Origin: a bacterium
GTDB lineage: Bacteria; UBP6; UBA1177
Reading direction: 5' to 3'
Length of the DNA: 44,928 bases
Assembly: GCA_016290135.1 (NCBI GenBank)
Contig: JAEESW010000017.1
Coordinates: 1 to 44,928, forward strand
The notes beneath the pieces were generated by a model that had not been told where the DNA came from, made no database searches, and worked only from the letters and a program-made list of their open reading frames with translations. Position numbers and translations under genes: made by a program. Position 1 is the stretch's first letter; each line of letters opens with the position of its first letter. Positions 34,143 to 44,928 of this stretch are shown here, piece by piece.

Positions 34143-35624
34143 ATGAAAAAAATTTTGGTTCTTGTTATCGCAGCCATGTTTCTTGCTGTAAGCTGCGGCG
34201 GCGGCGAAAGCAAAAAGATCGTTGAAGAAAAATCGCAGACTGTCAAAGCTGAAGAAGGCGGTGAAATCGAAATCGCAGGCGGTGAAGCAAAGATAAAAAT
34301 CCCTGCCGGCGCACTCGACAAAGACACCGAAATCTCGGTAACACTCTATAAAACAGACGGATTCAACAACAAAAAAGCGCTTGCATCCAATGTCGTTGAA
34401 TTCGGTCCTTCAGGCACGAAATTCAAAAAACCTGTTATAATCACGATCAATGCGGAAAAGGCTGTAAAAGGCAAAACTGTTGCGGCGGCCGTTATGAAAA
34501 GCGACGGAACGTGGAGCTACAGCGAAAAAGGAGCTTATGCGCTGTTCGGCGGATTTGACGAAGCTGGAGATCCGATAATGACGACTGCAGCCGGCGATCC
34601 TATAATGATCAGCAACGGAAATCTTACGACCGCTGCGGGAGACCCGATCATGAATGCGGCCGCAGGTGATCCCATCATGCTTGCTTCGGCAGGAGACCCG
34701 ATCATGACCAATGCTGCGGGAGACCCGATCATGAATGCAGCGGCAGGCGATCCGATCATGATGACGACCGGACACTTCTCAGACTATACTTTCATTGTTG
34801 TTGACGAAGTCGAAGAAGAAAATTCCAGCAATAACGGCGGCGGCTCGTCAGGCAAGGTCACATGCAAGACCGCGCGTGAGTGGGATAAGCTCGACGGGAC
34901 AGCAGACGATGAATATGAAGAAGATAACGAATCTATTTACTGCCAGAAAACAGGCGAAGAGATAGTTTACTGCATCGAAGGGGCTTTCACCGGCGAAAAT
35001 ACCAAGATCTATTCGGTAAAAGTCGACGGCAAGGAGTTCAAATGCAAAACTGACAATAATTATGACTGCATCATGGAAATGGAGCAGTACTGTGGAGCTC
35101 TTGACGGCGAATATGAAGACGGTTACTACTGCGAAGATCAGGGAATATGTGAAAATACCGGAGAAATGTCGAAATACTGCGCTTCGATGAGCGGCGACGG
35201 AAAAAACTACTATCAGGCAGGTGACCGGAAATTCGAATGCACGAACGAGAATGTCGAACAGTGCTATATGGATTACTATGAATACTGCGGCGACACCGTG
35301 TATGAAGAAGATCCCGAAGAACCCGACTTCGGTCTCATCTGCAGAACGGAGACTGAATGGGCTGAAGAATTCAGCAACGAGGATCACCACCAGTGGATCT
35401 GCGAAACAACGGGGCTTGAGATCTCGATCTGCATTCCGGACACATTCAGCATGGAAGAGATGGAAGAGGGCGAATTCCCGCCTTTCTATTCGATCGAAAC
35501 AGGCGGAGGAACGATCCTCTGCGATCCGTCGACTGCGCGTACCGACGGCACTATCGGGGACTATGCGACCAGCATGGACTGCTACAGCGAAGCTATTGAA
35601 TACTGTACACCTATGGTTTTTTAA
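34143..35624 (+). CDS. Lipoprotein with ZU5-like domain, seven AGDPIM repeats and three Cys-rich repeats
   Basis: A 493-residue lipoprotein ('AAMFLAVSC', lipid Cys 18). Residues about 36-135 resemble a ZU5-type beta domain ('AKIKIPAGALDKDTEISVTL', 'PVIITIN'). Residues 141-206 contain seven AGDPIM motifs spaced 8 to 14 residues apart, with Thr, Ala and Asn between. After a Ser/Asn/Gly linker, three Cys-rich repeats follow (residues 241-317, 330-382 and 400-488), each with the pattern of a first Cys, 'YCxxTGxE' or 'ICExTG', an 'F/YxC' strand and a final 'YC'. All Cys suggest disulfides in the envelope or outside the cell. I know no function for AGDPIM. A GGAGG site precedes the ATG. It follows the thioredoxin-like gene by 18 nt and precedes the aquaporin gene by 22 nt. 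Confidence 0.82.
   Translation: MKKILVLVIAAMFLAVSCGGGESKKIVEEKSQTVKAEEGGEIEIAGGEAKIKIPAGALDKDTEISVTLYKTDGFNNKKALASNVVEFGPSGTKFKKPVIITINAEKAVKGKTVAAAVMKSDGTWSYSEKGAYALFGGFDEAGDPIMTTAAGDPIMISNGNLTTAAGDPIMNAAAGDPIMLASAGDPIMTNAAGDPIMNAAAGDPIMMTTGHFSDYTFIVVDEVEEENSSNNGGGSSGKVTCKTAREWDKLDGTADDEYEEDNESIYCQKTGEEIVYCIEGAFTGENTKIYSVKVDGKEFKCKTDNNYDCIMEMEQYCGALDGEYEDGYYCEDQGICENTGEMSKYCASMSGDGKNYYQAGDRKFECTNENVEQCYMDYYEYCGDTVYEEDPEEPDFGLICRTETEWAEEFSNEDHHQWICETTGLEISICIPDTFSMEEMEEGEFPPFYSIETGGGTILCDPSTARTDGTIGDYATSMDCYSEAIEYCTPMVF
34563..34760 (+). repeat. AGDPIM tandem repeat array (7 copies, in frame)
   Basis: Seven copies of a GC[N]GG[N]GATCC[N]AT[N]ATG-type unit encode AGDPIM. Codons vary between copies at third positions, while the six residues are unchanged, which suggests selection on the protein. 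Confidence 0.9.
34863..35606 (+). repeat. Three diverged Cys-rich protein repeats
   Basis: Units at 34863-35093, 35130-35288 and 35340-35606. Each shares C...C-x-x-TG-x-E/M, a middle Cys pair, 'FxC' or 'ILC', and ends with E/Y-YC. The middle unit is shorter. The repeats are visible only in translation. Confidence 0.65.
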
Positions 35625-38798: not shown

Positions 38799-38834
38799 AC
38801 TTTGTTTGTTTTTTTGAAGCCGTGGAGGGAAAAC

Positions 38835-41800
38835 ATGAAAAAATGTATGTTGTTTGCTGCCGTATTCTTTTGTTTTACATCTCTTTCTGCTGACTGGGGA
38901 GAAGAACTCTGTGAAAATGTGACCTGTTCCGGTCACGGTGAATGTCATGATGACGGTGAAGACGAGTGGTGCGTCTGTGATGAAGGCTATATCGCAGACG
39001 GATTGGACTGTATTTTAGGCTGCGACGGCGTTACCTGCAGCGGTCACGGGTCATGCTCGGTCGTGAGCGGTGCCGAGGTGTGCACCTGCGAGGCGGGATT
39101 TTATGCAACTGGCTTGAATTGTATTCTGAACGAGGCTTCGACTGTCGATACTCTTGCAATTCTCAACGAAACGGAGTGCTACAATACGGGAAACTGCCAT
39201 TACAGGCTGATTTTTGCGACGGGTGCTTACGATTTTACTCCGGCACTTGCGTCTCTTTACGACATAATCGTAAATGTTCTGGACTCGGAAAACGTGTGGC
39301 ATAATTACCGGAAAACAGTGGCGCAATGCGTGACGGAAGGAGTCTGCGACAATGTTGATGCTCAGTATATTGATTTCTGGTTTCAGCACGAAGTGAACGG
39401 CAATCAGTATATAACTGTTGAGGTTCTGGGCAACGGCGACGATGCTTATGATGACATGTATCATGATGTCCAGATTGACTACTGCTACGGTGTTGACTGC
39501 GGAACGGGCGGCAGTTGCGACGGAACTTCGGGTTATCCGGTGTGTTCCTGCGATTACGGCTATGTTCTTCGTAATAATTATTGTGAGGAAGGCTGGTTTG
39601 AAGACGAAAATCTTGCGGCAGCGGTAGTGGAACTGCTTCAATACAAAGGTTATGATGTTGAAACGGAAACGGATATCGATCCTGAAATTCTTGAAGATAT
39701 CACGTATCTTCCGCTCAGGGGAAAGAATATTTCATCTTTAGCCGGGACCGGGCTCTTCCCTTCGTTAAGTGTTCTTGATATTTCAGGCAACAATATCAGA
39801 GACTTGTCTCCGCTTGCGGACTGTGAAGAACTTGTGATTCTCAATATGTCCGGCAATCCTGCAAGTGATTTGTCTCCCTTGAGTACTCTTCCGCTTGTAA
39901 GCCTTGATATTTCATATTCGGGAGTTTTTGATATGCAGCCTCTAGCTGATATGAATACGCTTGAGGAAATCATATTTGCCGACAGGGATAACGGAAAATA
40001 CGAAATGCTTCTGCATGAAAACTTCAATGCTATTGACTGGCTGATCGATAAAAACGGTACGGCCTGTTTGAAACCGGTCTATAATTCAAGAACAGGAATG
40101 AATGTTCCTGTGAGCAATCCGGACTGTTCGGGCGGCGGAATCTGTCTGAACGGCCGTTGTCTGTGCAGCGAAGGGTATTATTATGACAACGGAGACTGTC
40201 ATGCCGTCAGCAACTGCGCTTCAGACGAACACTGGGATTCCGACAGACATTATTGTATGCCTGATAAAAAGGATGCCGATTGTCCCGAACCGCCGGAAAA
40301 TGCAGTCATTTCTGACAAGGATCAGCTTGAGTGGAACGGAACGGAATATGTTCTTCCGGCAGGACGCACCCTTGAGCTGTGCAGATACGGAGATTCTTCA
40401 TGTGCAAACAGTGCCTGTCATTGGAAATGTGCCGGCGGATACCATTTTGTAAAAGATGATATATGCGCATCAGATGCTGCAAGGAATATTCCGGACAGTG
40501 CATATAACCAGCTGATCCTGCCGAATATCTCGAGGCATGATGTTGCGCTTGAGCCGGTTCCCGGGGTTCCGTCGTTCGCTCCGGTACTGAAGGCGGGGAT
40601 TTATTACGATGAAAAGAAAAATCTTGTTGCCGGATGGCATTTTGATTTACCGAGAGTTGAATTTGCCATTGACGGTGTCGGAAAGATTGTCCCGTTGGAA
40701 AGCTGGGATCAGAAAACAGTCTATGTCACCATGCCGTGGGGAAAAGAGGAATATTCTCTTCCTGTAGAAAAAAAATGTTTCGATTCGAATGACGGACCGG
40801 TCGACTGCGGGAGATATTCAAGCGTAAAGAGTGTGCAGGTGACATATTATCCTGCGCCTGGTCAGAATGTTTTTTCGTACATAATTCTGGGAACCACGGC
40901 AGAAGCCTATGAATCCTTTACGAACAATTTCGGTCATGCAATCAGCGGCAGTGATGATGTCTGGACAGTTACCCGTTACGGGGAAGACGGTTCTGTCACG
41001 GAGTTTTCAAGAGGAAGGATCTTCACAGCCGGAGAAGAGGAAGATTACGCAAAAAGGCCGGCTTATTACACCTTTATGGACTACATTCCGATATCCAAGC
41101 ACACAACGAGAGAGGGTCGCGAGACTTCATTCAGCTACGAATGGGACCGTACGGAGATGAAGGGAAGCTATCATCACTACAACATACGGTCGGCAAGAAT
41201 TACAGATCCTCTGAAAAGGGTCATAAAAATCGAATCTCTGTCAAATTCGGAAAATCCGTCATACGGTCTCATTGGAAGACCTGACGACGATCATAAGACA
41301 GTATGCAGACCGCTTGAAGGCAGTCTCGAAATATCTATCGGTAAAGTAAACATAAATAATACTCCTGTTGAACCTTTGAGGAAAATTGTTGAATACAATT
41401 TCTCAGGCGGATTTGATATGTCTGCCGAAATATATGTGAAGAACGGCTGGATCAGAAGAGACAGCTATTCGAGGAACGGGAATATTTTTTATCTTTCATC
41501 CATGGCAGGAAAGGATTCTATCGGAGAAACGACATGGGAATTCACAGAAGAGAACGATACGCCGGACGGCTACATTGAAAGGAAAAAAGTCAAAAATCAG
41601 GAATACATCGTTAAAACGGTAAAAGGAAATTTCTATTCACCGAAGCAGGGAAAAAATCCGAAATATTATTCACTTTCAGATGCGCCTTACAAAACAGCAG
41701 CGGTCTATTCCATTGACGGAAGCGGGATCTCCGGTAAGAAAAGAATAGTTGAAGATTATTTTACGAACTGGCTGCAGCCTGCGAAAAAAGTGACATGCGA

Positions 41801-44800
41801 GCGGAATTACAGTGATGAAGAGGAAGATTGTGACGGTATCTCAAACACAGTAACCGAAGAGATCAGATACAATGTTCCCGGTTCCCCGGTATACTTCAAA
41901 AATGCAGACGGTCAGGTGACAGTCAATCTTTACGATACGACAGATGAAGCAAGTCCCCTCAATTACATAATTCATTTTCTTTCGGATCCGTTGAATTACA
42001 GCAATGCAATAAATTTAAATATTACCTTGCCTGTGCCTGATTTTATAAGAGCAGATAATTTACATAAATCCGGGACAATGGCTTGTTCTGCTGTTTACAG
42101 CCTTGACGCGAATGAAAATATCATAAGCGCGATGCTGTCGCAGTACATATCGGACGGTATTGTCCCGAACTTGGGCTGGTGCAGCAACTCGGCATACCGC
42201 AGAGTAACGAACTACGAATGGAAAAGAGAAGACGACGACTGGGAAAAGCCTTATGATCTGAAGAGCGTTACTTATCCTGACGGAAAAGAGCGGGAATTTA
42301 CCTACGACTACGAGATATCAGAGGGCAGTGCCGGCAAAGTGTGGGGAGAAACCATAACCGGCAGCAACAATCAGAACACGCTTCAGACATGTTATGAATA
42401 CGACGAAAATTATCAGCTTGTTGCCCAGGGCATAGGTCCGGCAGGAAACTCCTGTATCCCTAAAAAGGGTTTCGGTTTTGATTCTTCAGGACTGTTGATG
42501 ACCCGTGATTATTCAATTGATGAAAATGACAGCGAAGTTCTTGAAAACAACTACATTTACGACTATCTCGGCAGAAAACTCGTTGAAAGAAATTCCGCAG
42601 GAGTATCGACGGTTTATGTCTACGACAGCCTTGACCGCGTAGTTTTCACATTTTTCGGCTGCAATGTCGACTCCAATTCTTTCGGGACAGTCTATAATCC
42701 ATACAATTTTGATGACAACAGTAATGCAGGAGAAGACGGAAGAGGAGTTGCATTTGACTATCACAACGATGAATTTCCGTATGCACGCTATATAAATCTC
42801 AACACCTGTGAATACTACCGCAAATACAAATACGATGTCATGAGCAATCTCGTCGAGACATATTTCTTTGAATACTGGGGAGCAGGCTCAAACAATCAGA
42901 TAGTTAAAAACACTACATCTCCCAAGATCATCAAGCAGAAAACTGAATACGACATGCTGGGCAGAGCAATAAGAAGCTGCCAGTTCGATGCAACAACTGC
43001 CGACCCGCAAAGAAGGTGCATAGAAACTGAGCATGACGCATTCGGAAACATCGTGAAAAAGAGTGAAAACGGTGAAGAGAGAATAATCACCTACGATCAC
43101 AGAAACAGACCGCTCACAGTGACAGTTGACGGACTTCCGACGGAACAATATTCCTACAGCAACAGCACTGCGGGCGGTTATTTCGGCTACGACTCGATCA
43201 GAAACAAATATGAAAACATCGATCCTCTTACGACCTACAAAGACAAATGGGGCAGAGCCGCGAAAAGCGTCGATCCGTTCGGAAACGAGACGGAAACAAC
43301 TTACGAAAGTGATTATTCCGACAACATCACTTCCCAGACCACGACTTCATCCACTATAAAAACAGGCGAAACAGCCTGGACTTATGATGATCTGGACAGA
43401 AAATTAAGTGAAACAAGAAAGCAGTTCATTCCCGGTTCGGAAAGCACGACCAATGTCAATCATGTGACCTGGTGGGATTATGACAGCATCGGTAATGTCA
43501 TTTCGGTAGAATCGAGTGACGGCACGAAACAGACTTATTCCTACGACACCTTGAACAGACCGGTAGAAACTGTAAATTATGAAAGGATCAATTCAAACTG
43601 GGTCGAAACATCCTCTTCTGAAAACTCCTACGACGCAAGCGGCAGGCTTTTCCGCACTGAGACGACAAAAGACAACAAAACCATTCGTGAAGACTACAGC
43701 TTCGACACTTTCGGGAGAATCACTTCGGTCAAAACGACCGATCCGGCAAATTCATCGCGCTACCGCGTCAAATTCTACAATACGGGCGGTCAGGTCATCT
43801 GGGAAACCGACGAGGAATCAGACAGTGATCCGCGCAATCTTGAAGACCTTGGCCTTTGGCATGTCGAAGTCGGCAACCAGAAATACTACACATACAACGC
43901 GTTCGGCGATCTTGAAAAGACTGTTTATGTTATGACCAATAACGGTAAAGGTTTCGGCTCTCCCGACATAAATCCGTGGCTTAATGACAGTCAGATCACG
44001 ACAAATTTCACCTATGACATTTTCGGGCGCATCACATCGAGGATTAACGACCGTTCCGGTGTTACGGAGTATAACTATTACGACACCAACGCAGCATCAA
44101 GCCACCGCCGCAACAAGCTCGAAAGCATTCAGATCACTCCGGCACTGACGGACAATGATACAGGGTATCAGGATTCAGACAGCAGCACTCAGACATACAC
44201 TTACACCTACAATGACAAAGGCGATGAATCAAGTGTCGAATACACTGAAGGCAACAGCTATTCAATGGAATTTGCTTTCACGCGTGACGATTACGGCAGG
44301 ATTACAGGCAAAACTTCGAACGGTTCAGTTCCGGTGACACAGACATTCACCTACAACAACAGAAACCTGCTTGAAACAGCGACAGACACAGTCGGCAACG
44401 CCGCGACAAGCGTGACAAGATACTACGATTCATTCGGCAACCCGTATTCAGAAGCGGTTTCGGCGAACAACATCACAAAAACAGTTTCACGCCGGATGAC
44501 CGATGCAAAAACATATCAGTTCACCTATCCTGACGGAAAAACTCTCCGCAAAACTGCAACCGGCAGCGATCTTGATTTGATTGAATACAACAATTCCGAA
44601 ATCGCTTCATACAGCCGCGCAAACGGCGTTCTGACTGCCGTCACAAAAGGTCAGAACCTCATCGAAACATTCAGCTACAACAACTGGAACATGCTCGACA
44701 ATCACACTGTCAGCAACGCAAACGCCGATATTTACGATATGAACTACGGCTATTCCCGCGGCTGGCACTTGATCGAGAAAGCTGACGGCATCAGGAACAC

Positions 44801-44928
44801 TTCCGATAAATACAGCTACGATTCATATTACCGCCTGAAGGAAGTCAAATACGATTTTGCGAACAATACAGCTGCACGAACCGACAGCTTCTTTGCTGAC
44901 GGCGTCCACAACATCGAACAGAGCACCG
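38835..44928 (+). CDS. Giant secreted EGF-like/LRR/YD-repeat (RHS-like) protein, 3' end outside window
   Basis: From ATG 38835 the frame stays open to the right edge (2031 codons, no stop). The signal peptide 'MKKCMLFAAVFFCFTSLSA' precedes the EGF-like units: 'VTCSGHGECHDDG' and 'CVCDEGY' (from C26), 'VTCSGHGSCSVV' and 'CTCEAGF', 'GVDCGTGGSC' and 'CSCDYGY', and later 'GGGICLNGRCLCSEGY'. Between the third and fourth, residues about 289-385 hold internalin-like leucine-rich repeats ('PSLSVLDISGNNIRDLSPLADCEEL'). From about residue 1130 on there are many YD-type repeats ('YDYLGRKLVERNSAGVSTVY', 'YDSLDRVV', 'YDHRNRPLTVTVDG', 'YDDLDRKLSETR'), as in RHS and teneurin-like shells. RHS proteins often enclose a variable carboxyl toxin; that part, if present, is beyond 44928. 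The protein is probably on the cell surface or released. No VgrG, immunity gene or secretion genes are seen in the window. Confidence 0.85.
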   Translation, partial: MKKCMLFAAVFFCFTSLSADWGEELCENVTCSGHGECHDDGEDEWCVCDEGYIADGLDCILGCDGVTCSGHGSCSVVSGAEVCTCEAGFYATGLNCILNEASTVDTLAILNETECYNTGNCHYRLIFATGAYDFTPALASLYDIIVNVLDSENVWHNYRKTVAQCVTEGVCDNVDAQYIDFWFQHEVNGNQYITVEVLGNGDDAYDDMYHDVQIDYCYGVDCGTGGSCDGTSGYPVCSCDYGYVLRNNYCEEGWFEDENLAAAVVELLQYKGYDVETETDIDPEILEDITYLPLRGKNISSLAGTGLFPSLSVLDISGNNIRDLSPLADCEELVILNMSGNPASDLSPLSTLPLVSLDISYSGVFDMQPLADMNTLEEIIFADRDNGKYEMLLHENFNAIDWLIDKNGTACLKPVYNSRTGMNVPVSNPDCSGGGICLNGRCLCSEGYYYDNGDCHAVSNCASDEHWDSDRHYCMPDKKDADCPEPPENAVISDKDQLEWNGTEYVLPAGRTLELCRYGDSSCANSACHWKCAGGYHFVKDDICASDAARNIPDSAYNQLILPNISRHDVALEPVPGVPSFAPVLKAGIYYDEKKNLVAGWHFDLPRVEFAIDGVGKIVPLESWDQKTVYVTMPWGKEEYSLPVEKKCFDSNDGPVDCGRYSSVKSVQVTYYPAPGQNVFSYIILGTTAEAYESFTNNFGHAISGSDDVWTVTRYGEDGSVTEFSRGRIFTAGEEEDYAKRPAYYTFMDYIPISKHTTREGRETSFSYEWDRTEMKGSYHHYNIRSARITDPLKRVIKIESLSNSENPSYGLIGRPDDDHKTVCRPLEGSLEISIGKVNINNTPVEPLRKIVEYNFSGGFDMSAEIYVKNGWIRRDSYSRNGNIFYLSSMAGKDSIGETTWEFTEENDTPDGYIERKKVKNQEYIVKTVKGNFYSPKQGKNPKYYSLSDAPYKTAAVYSIDGSGISGKKRIVEDYFTNWLQPAKKVTCERNYSDEEEDCDGISNTVTEEIRYNVPGSPVYFKNADGQVTVNLYDTTDEASPLNYIIHFLSDPLNYSNAINLNITLPVPDFIRADNLHKSGTMACSAVYSLDANENIISAMLSQYISDGIVPNLGWCSNSAYRRVTNYEWKREDDDWEKPYDLKSVTYPDGKEREFTYDYEISEGSAGKVWGETITGSNNQNTLQTCYEYDENYQLVAQGIGPAGNSCIPKKGFGFDSSGLLMTRDYSIDENDSEVLENNYIYDYLGRKLVERNSAGVSTVYVYDSLDRVVFTFFGCNVDSNSFGTVYNPYNFDDNSNAGEDGRGVAFDYHNDEFPYARYINLNTCEYYRKYKYDVMSNLVETYFFEYWGAGSNNQIVKNTTSPKIIKQKTEYDMLGRAIRSCQFDATTADPQRRCIETEHDAFGNIVKKSENGEERIITYDHRNRPLTVTVDGLPTEQYSYSNSTAGGYFGYDSIRNKYENIDPLTTYKDKWGRAAKSVDPFGNETETTYESDYSDNITSQTTTSSTIKTGETAWTYDDLDRKLSETRKQFIPGSESTTNVNHVTWWDYDSIGNVISVESSDGTKQTYSYDTLNRPVETVNYERINSNWVETSSSENSYDASGRLFRTETTKDNKTIREDYSFDTFGRITSVKTTDPANSSRYRVKFYNTGGQVIWETDEESDSDPRNLEDLGLWHVEVGNQKYYTYNAFGDLEKTVYVMTNNGKGFGSPDINPWLNDSQITTNFTYDIFGRITSRINDRSGVTEYNYYDTNAASSHRRNKLESIQITPALTDNDTGYQDSDSSTQTYTYTYNDKGDESSVEYTEGNSYSMEFAFTRDDYGRITGKTSNGSVPVTQTFTYNNRNLLETATDTVGNAATSVTRYYDSFGNPYSEAVSANNITKTVSRRMTDAKTYQFTYPDGKTLRKTATGSDLDLIEYNNSEIASYSRANGVLTAVTKGQNLIETFSYNNWNMLDNHTVSNANADIYDMNYGYSRGWHLIEKADGIRNTSDKYSYDSYYRLKEVKYDFANNTAARTDSFFADGVHNIEQST

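What the first reader, a model, noticed from the sequence alone, without database searches (positions are those of the whole stretch)
38835..44928. EGF-like + internalin-type LRR + YD-repeat giant with unseen carboxyl end
EGF units interrupted by LRRs and followed by over 800 residues of YD-repeat shell resemble a teneurin-like order in a bacterium. Many adhesion-type modules plus an RHS-type shell suggest contact-dependent delivery or adhesion; the missing 3' end would show whether a toxin is present.
Basis: partly seen in the sequence, partly recalled or inferred. Interest (0 to 1): 0.62.

Follow-up and report, generated by a model that had tools for sequence, protein, structure and literature searches.

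The report
Rhs toxin with swappable internal warhead
A giant secreted protein of a rumen bacterium is one copy of a family of interbacterial Rhs toxins in which the variable, toxin-like segment lies between two conserved blocks, so it appears to be exchanged like a cassette while the old immunity genes are kept as a downstream row.

Summary
ORF 38835-44927 (2,031 aa, cut by the contig end) has a signal peptide, EGF-like modules split by an internalin-type LRR, and an RHS/YD shell. The organism belongs to a rumen/gut genus of candidate phylum UBP6. The contig breaks because the last ~170 codons recur in other copies in the genome. Three complete relatives (2,700-2,730 aa) and the genome's other contigs show the missing end: an Rhs core end (DPIG-(23)-DP[ST]GL), a variable tip of ~140-235 aa, and a conserved C-terminal tail of ~110-140 aa with no Pfam or NCBIfam match. 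Known Rhs toxins end in the toxin. Synteny places the window's own missing end on contig C11. Arrays of orphan core-tip-tail cassettes, immunity-like envelope proteins and stand-alone tail ORFs follow. Median pairwise identity is 78% for core, 11% for tip and 42% for tail. Between genomes, flanks switch from ~100% identical to unrelated inside the tail. The tail's 3' end carries the downstream gene's ribosome-binding site. Best reading: an Rhs polymorphic toxin, probably acting in the target envelope, whose warhead is exchanged through core and tail homology. The teneurin resemblance is superficial on present tests. New variant of a known kind; toxicity is inferred, not shown.

The parts
38824..38829 (+). 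Shine-Dalgarno GGAGGG, 5 nt before the ATG
   Evidence: sequence read
38835..44927 (+). Full visible ORF P0001, 2031 aa, 3' end cut by the contig end
38835..38891 (+). Sec-type signal peptide (residues 1-19), by eye
   Evidence: sequence; N-terminus conserved in six species
38910..39122 (+). EGF-like modules 1 and 2 (residues 26-96)
   Evidence: six-Cys spacing, invariant in alignment A6; weak Pfam EGF hits
39123..39482 (+). Unnamed ~120-aa domain, the most conserved part (residues 97-216)
   Evidence: 90-94% identity over residues 101-200 across relatives
39483..39584 (+). EGF-like module 3 (residues 217-250)
39693..39977 (+). Internalin-type LRR (residues 287-381)
40125..40469 (+). Fourth EGF-like and Cys-rich region (residues 431-545); includes part of the fast-changing stretch 401-500
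40512..42824 (+). N-terminal part of the shell (residues 560-1330), no known domain detected
42825..44927 (+). YD/RHS shell (residues 1331-2031); RHS_repeat matches at 43479-43574 and 43629-43742
44418..44927 (+). Segment repeated in the genome's cassettes (residues 1862-2031, 94% identical on C11); explains the contig break
37739..38662 (+). Radical-SAM-like flank gene (identified by eye); in two relatives directly followed by the GNAT gene found after the array on contig C11, which ties C11 to the window

Best explanation
The ORF is the 5' three quarters of an Rhs polymorphic toxin. A Sec-exported protein carries EGF/LRR adhesion-type modules, which probably bind a neighbouring cell, and a YD shell. 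The shell ends in the aspartate-motif core end (self-cleavage inferred) and encloses a variable tip followed by a conserved C-terminal tail (enclosure inferred). Tips are probably envelope-directed enzymes, because cognate immunity-like genes encode lipoproteins, secreted proteins or membrane proteins, and five tip families show peptidase- or amidase-like motifs. Shown at sequence level: the tip-coding DNA is the only non-homologous part; it is bracketed by ~1.2 kb of core and ~0.2-0.35 kb of tail; orphan copies lie in arrays; and crossovers between genomes fall inside the tail. Inferred: recombination at core and tail installs a new tip with its immunity gene and pushes the old immunity gene, with a tail remnant supplying its ribosome-binding site, into a downstream memory array. 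The window's own missing end is most likely on contig C11 (tip family F, tail, then a membrane-ankyrin immunity-like gene).
For: Complete relatives with core end, tip and tail. DNA homology stops within about 5 nt of the DPxGL codons and resumes in the tail up to its stop codon. Median amino-acid identity core 77.7%, tip 10.8%, tail 42.1%. 49 tails, 30 attached and 19 stand-alone. Flank pairs: 10 match on both sides, 14 on the left only, 33 on the right only. Sliding identity shows switches inside the tail in the clearest of 10 inspected pairs; e.g. one immunity gene is 98.5% identical behind an attached tail in G013 and a stand-alone tail in G004. Shine-Dalgarno at or just after the tail stop in 35/49 and within tail codons in 10/49; TAG stop 27/49 against 4/27 window genes. 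Downstream genes pass the lipobox/hydrophobic-segment rule in 40/44, against 26/50 control genes. HExxH in 9 of 10 members of two tip families; M15-like and His/Cys motifs in three others. Synteny: radical-SAM gene next to GNAT gene in G004 and G013 links the window to C11; the 424-aa gene next to rpoN in G004 and G007 links C38 to C47.
Against: No toxicity, export or recombination was tested. Tips have no significant Pfam match (M15 0.029 and DUF5675 0.12 are below cut-off). AlphaFold models were poor (pLDDT 44.5 and 48.7), so neither enzyme folds nor the tail fold are supported. The counts are not independent because cassettes are related, so the p-values are only indicative. The link to C11 rests on synteny plus pairing of two 5' and two 3' fragments; about 62 codons are unsequenced and were not bridged. 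Long-read data could show other arrangements.
Confidence: 0.8

Rival explanations
1. A bacterial teneurin-like protein (TLP): an adhesion receptor or toxin on the teneurin superfold, with EGF stalk, FN-plug, NHL propeller, YD shell and C-terminal toxin.
For: EGF-like repeats before a YD shell; weak EGF_Teneurin/EGF_TEN matches; bacterial TLPs also have polymorphic C-termini with a downstream immunity gene (PMC13018210).
Against: No NHL or FN-plug match; the profile of residues 560-1330 finds nothing credible in the PDB; the YD core profile finds Rhs effectors but no teneurin. EGF units are split by an LRR, and a conserved tail follows the tip.
Confidence: 0.1
2. A large surface adhesin that uses EGF, LRR and YD modules for attachment; the variable C-terminus is an antigenic or ligand-binding tip rather than a toxin.
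For: Adhesion-type N-terminal modules; no confident toxin-domain match; LRR and EGF occur in adhesins (general knowledge).
Against: Each tip type is usually followed by its own downstream gene, inherited with it (10 pairs match on both sides); hydrolase-like motifs; orphan arrays typical of polymorphic toxins (PMC2935791, PMC3482391).
Confidence: 0.08
3. The conserved tail is only a protein secretion or sorting signal, and the breakpoints in it are incidental to ordinary C-terminal displacement driven by the core.
For: Tails are constrained as protein (median dN/dS about 0.15-0.2) and are last in the protein; sorting signals are typically conserved C-termini.
Against: In the own genome and phylum, the tails inspected are attached to RHS cores or sit in immunity-type arrays, not on unrelated exported proteins; right-only and left-only flank pairs outnumber both-side pairs. 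The two roles are not exclusive.
Confidence: 0.25
4. Stand-alone tails are functional small genes (for example leader ORFs or decoys) rather than scars.
For: 18 of 19 end at the usual tail stop or motif; dN/dS not relaxed (0.148 against 0.195); they carry the immunity ribosome-binding site.
Against: The detection rule favours intact copies; disrupted copies exist (own C27 with three stops); dS is near saturation, so constraint may date from when they were attached.
Confidence: 0.3

Closest known systems
Rhs polymorphic toxins with C-terminal displacement (Jackson et al. 2009, PMC2935791; Poole et al. 2011, PMC3150448; Koskiniemi et al. 2014, PMC3967940)
   Same: YD core, conserved core end with two DPxG motifs, non-homologous tips, arrays of core-fragment-plus-tip cassettes, adjacent immunity genes.
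   Different: Those tips run to the C-terminus. Here a conserved ~110-140 aa tail follows every intact tip and recurs alone before immunity genes; the core-end spacing is DPIG-(23)-DP rather than DPxG-(18)-DPxG; a signal peptide with EGF/LRR modules replaces a T6SS N-terminus, and no VipB was found.
Bacterial teneurin-like proteins (PMC13018210)
   Same: Large YD-shell proteins, often with signal peptides, polymorphic C-terminal toxins and downstream immunity genes.
   Different: TLPs are defined by the teneurin superfold (FN-plug, NHL propeller), not detected here; the passages read mention EGF repeats only for metazoan teneurins.
Vibrio cholerae T6SS effector displacement and immunity arrays (PMC5361080)
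   Same: Sequential displacement leaves old immunity genes downstream, some with effector 3'-end remnants.
   Different: Effectors there are T6SS effectors and insertion was attributed to homology-facilitated illegitimate recombination; here a shared tail provides homology on the right-hand side.
MafB/MafI islands of Neisseria (PMC4287609)
   Same: Signal-peptide toxin followed by alternative C-terminal cassettes with immunity genes.
   Different: DUF1020 N-terminus, no YD shell; variable region at the C-terminus, with conserved motifs described only at the 5' side of cassettes in the passages read.

Membership tests
Rhs polymorphic toxin | YD/RHS repeat shell | tested here: met
   RHS_repeat 1.6e-14; PDB Rhs cores 2.7e-26
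Rhs polymorphic toxin | Conserved core end with two aspartate motifs | tested here: met
   RNRYYHIDMHRFINQDPIG...DP[ST]GL in 29/29 C-termini checked; read in relatives and own contigs, not in the window itself, which stops short
Rhs polymorphic toxin | Variable tip after the core | tested here: met
   median 10.8% identity; 11 tip groups assigned from blastp
Rhs polymorphic toxin | Immunity gene directly downstream | tested here: met
   44/49 tails followed by a gene, mostly 9 nt after the stop or overlapping it; protective function not tested
Rhs polymorphic toxin | Toxin forms the extreme C-terminus | tested here: not met
   a conserved tail follows the tip; this is why it is filed as a variant
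Rhs polymorphic toxin | Toxic activity of the tip | not testable with these tools
T6SS Rhs effector | T6SS in the genome | tested here: not met
   no VipB (control E. coli rings); genome 98% complete
Teneurin / teneurin-like protein | NHL beta-propeller and FN-plug | tested here: inconclusive
   no Pfam or PDB-profile match; sequence search can miss these folds
Teneurin / teneurin-like protein | Eight EGF repeats in tandem (metazoan) | tested here: not met
   about four, split by another domain and an LRR
Teneurin / teneurin-like protein | Tox-GHH C-terminal domain (metazoan) | tested here: not met
   no such match in the 12 tips scanned

The most novel reading that the evidence does not exclude
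A two-armed Rhs exchange system: a conserved C-terminal tail domain, unknown to Pfam and NCBIfam and so far found only in this order of UBP6, serves at once as the right-hand homology arm for swapping toxin tips, as the ribosome-binding and coupling element of the immunity gene, and as a constrained protein domain delivered with or needed by the toxin. Repeated swaps build a genomic record of past toxins as [tail-immunity] units.
Probability: 0.5. Interest if true: 0.7.

Novelty: new variant of a known kind. Interest (0 to 1): 0.6.

Why it matters
How an Rhs locus gains a new tip without losing the old immunity gene has been modelled with circular intermediates or illegitimate recombination. 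A family in which homology brackets the toxin on both sides makes that question directly testable, because breakpoints can be read off genomes. It also breaks the working rule that the toxin is the last domain of a polymorphic toxin, so automatic toxin finders that take the C-terminus would report the tail instead of the warhead. It reveals polymorphic toxin warfare in an uncultured rumen phylum.

Tried and rejected
C47 as direct continuation of the window: rejected, because the 151-bp overlap is only 90.7% identical and synteny places C47 with C38. Teneurin membership: not supported. AlphaFold of two tip+tail proteins: pLDDT 44.5 and 48.7, so no fold search was run. PHROGs and PADLOC: only weak coiled-coil-like matches. 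T9SS SprA search: uninformative, since no control rang. Tail profile against the PDB: nothing credible. Known enzyme families for tips: only sub-threshold hints. Selection test on stand-alone tails: not decisive, because dS is near saturation. Literature searches for a conserved domain after an Rhs toxin returned nothing describing it (the library lacks most subscription journals).

Full report
What is there. The window is a complete contig (G000:C28, 44,928 bp) of a 2.47-Mb draft genome. Relatives carrying homologues are ruminant MAGs, two named UBP6 (UBA1177, UBA1209) in their public titles. The ORF 38835-44927 encodes 2,031 residues and is cut by the contig end. Its order is signal peptide, two EGF-like modules, a very conserved ~120-aa domain, a third EGF-like module, an internalin-type LRR, a Cys-rich EGF-like stretch, a ~770-aa shell part with no recognised domain, and a YD/RHS core.

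Why the end is missing. The last ~170 residues recur at 88-94% identity on contigs C11 and C47, and a second N-terminus (88% identical over 362 aa) sits at the end of C38. This is a repeat-induced assembly break. C38 and C47 belong together: the 424-aa gene before the C38 copy directly abuts rpoN (the C47 flank) in G004 and G007. The window and C11 belong together: the radical-SAM-like gene before the window ORF is directly followed by the GNAT gene (the C11 flank) in G004 and G013 (L101, L105, L129). So the window gene most likely continues, after about 62 unsequenced codons, into C11:1-1358. The pieces were read separately and not joined.

What the end looks like. Three relatives are complete: G004 2,700 aa, G011 2,722 aa and G006 2,730 aa. 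Across 29 C-termini the last 130 core residues have a median identity of 77.7%, the tip 10.8% and the tail 42.1%. The core ends in RNRYYHIDMHRFINQDPIG-(23)-DP[ST]GL in all 29. Published Rhs cores end in DPXG-(18)-DPXG (PMC2935791). The tail has 12 invariant columns, including N-P-x-Y, D-P-x-K and a final D-P. It has no Pfam or NCBIfam match, and its PDB matches are not credible. It occurs in 18 of 28 genomes of the phylum held, attached to RHS cores also in another genus of the family and another family of the order.

Arrays. Behind the full-length gene stand orphan cassettes (core fragment, tip, tail), each followed by an immunity-like gene, plus stand-alone tail ORFs of 66-174 aa in front of further immunity-like genes. 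DNA homology between cassettes covers ~1.2 kb of core, stops within about 5 nt of the DPxGL codons, is absent in the tip, and resumes in the tail up to its stop codon. Of the 49 tails, 30 are attached and 19 stand alone.

Evidence for exchange at the tail. Among pairs of tails, 10 share both flanks, 14 only the left and 33 only the right. Sliding identity in 10 pairs shows 96-100% on one side and unrelated sequence on the other, with the drop inside the tail block in the clearest cases. One immunity gene is 98.5% identical in G013, behind an attached tail, and in G004, behind a stand-alone tail; another is 96.5% identical between G012 and G007 in the same two states. These look like before-and-after snapshots of displacement.

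Coupling. In 35 of 49 cases a Shine-Dalgarno sequence overlaps or directly follows the tail stop (often TAGGAGG). In 10 more it lies in the tail codons for PEV, and the immunity ATG lies within the tail frame. TAG stops are 27/49 in tails against 4/27 in window genes. This gives a DNA-level reason why a tail stays in front of each immunity gene. Protein-level constraint is also strong (median dN/dS 0.15-0.2), with the caveat of saturated dS.

Likely target. 40 of 44 downstream genes pass a lipobox or hydrophobic-segment rule, against 26 of 50 control genes; three of the four failures have a visible signal peptide. They include WG-repeat lipoproteins, ankyrin proteins and DUF4424-like secreted proteins. 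Tip families show HExxH (5/6 and 4/4 members), an M15-like HxxGxAxD...HxxHxGW, HQIH...GC, and GHIS...NNCGQ, with sub-threshold Pfam hints to M15 peptidase and DUF5675. I infer action in the target envelope, probably on peptidoglycan or membrane. Tip F, the window's likely own tip, has no motif; its neighbour is a membrane-ankyrin protein.

Mechanism, marked. Shown by sequence: modular anatomy, bracketed tip, arrays, breakpoints in the tail, ribosome-binding sites in or at the tail. Inferred: export by Sec and display by an unknown outer-membrane route (no T6SS marker), binding through EGF/LRR, self-cleavage after DPxGL, delivery, toxicity, immunity.

Comparison. It meets the Rhs features tested except that the toxin is not the last domain, so it is a variant of Rhs polymorphic toxins. 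The general displacement idea is known (PMC2935791, PMC3482391, PMC5361080, PMC4287609). New here are the conserved tail, its double role, and the EGF/LRR-bearing front in this phylum. It is not shown to be a teneurin-like protein (PMC13018210), although that group works in a similar way.

Noticed in passing
window 34143-35624 (+); also locus L008 1-3936 (-): Lipoprotein-like proteins with many copies of the short repeat AAGDPIM / GGDPIM; two unrelated-looking genes of this genome share it.
   Followed up: no
L151 (G000:C27), L150 (G007:C2:79000-90000), L152 (G007:C11): Runs of immunity-like genes, some with tail remnants, without an intact full-length toxin gene; on C27 a remnant of the toxin's first 39 codons lies next to the last third of a tail, as if the gene between had been deleted.
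   Followed up: partly
P0001 residues 1501-2031; Two divergent core types (NQTCYATNLHNFLWGG and FTPKSTAAISPFLWGG), about 35-45% identical over this stretch, coexist in the genus; some genomes carry both.
   Followed up: partly
P0001 residues 401-500: Fast-changing stretch (26-29% identity) behind the LRR, flanked by regions far more conserved; possible target-binding variation.
   Followed up: no
L008 15928-17709 (-) and L053 2-2785 (+): The tips on G000:C47 and G007:C2 are 99.7% identical in protein and ~97% in DNA over 3.7 kb with the immunity gene, though the genomes are different species and the loci have different flanks: probable recent transfer.
   Followed up: partly
L046-L059, between tip and tail: Many C-termini carry a small beta-hairpin-like linker with a C-x-G-x-C type motif just before the tail.
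   Followed up: no
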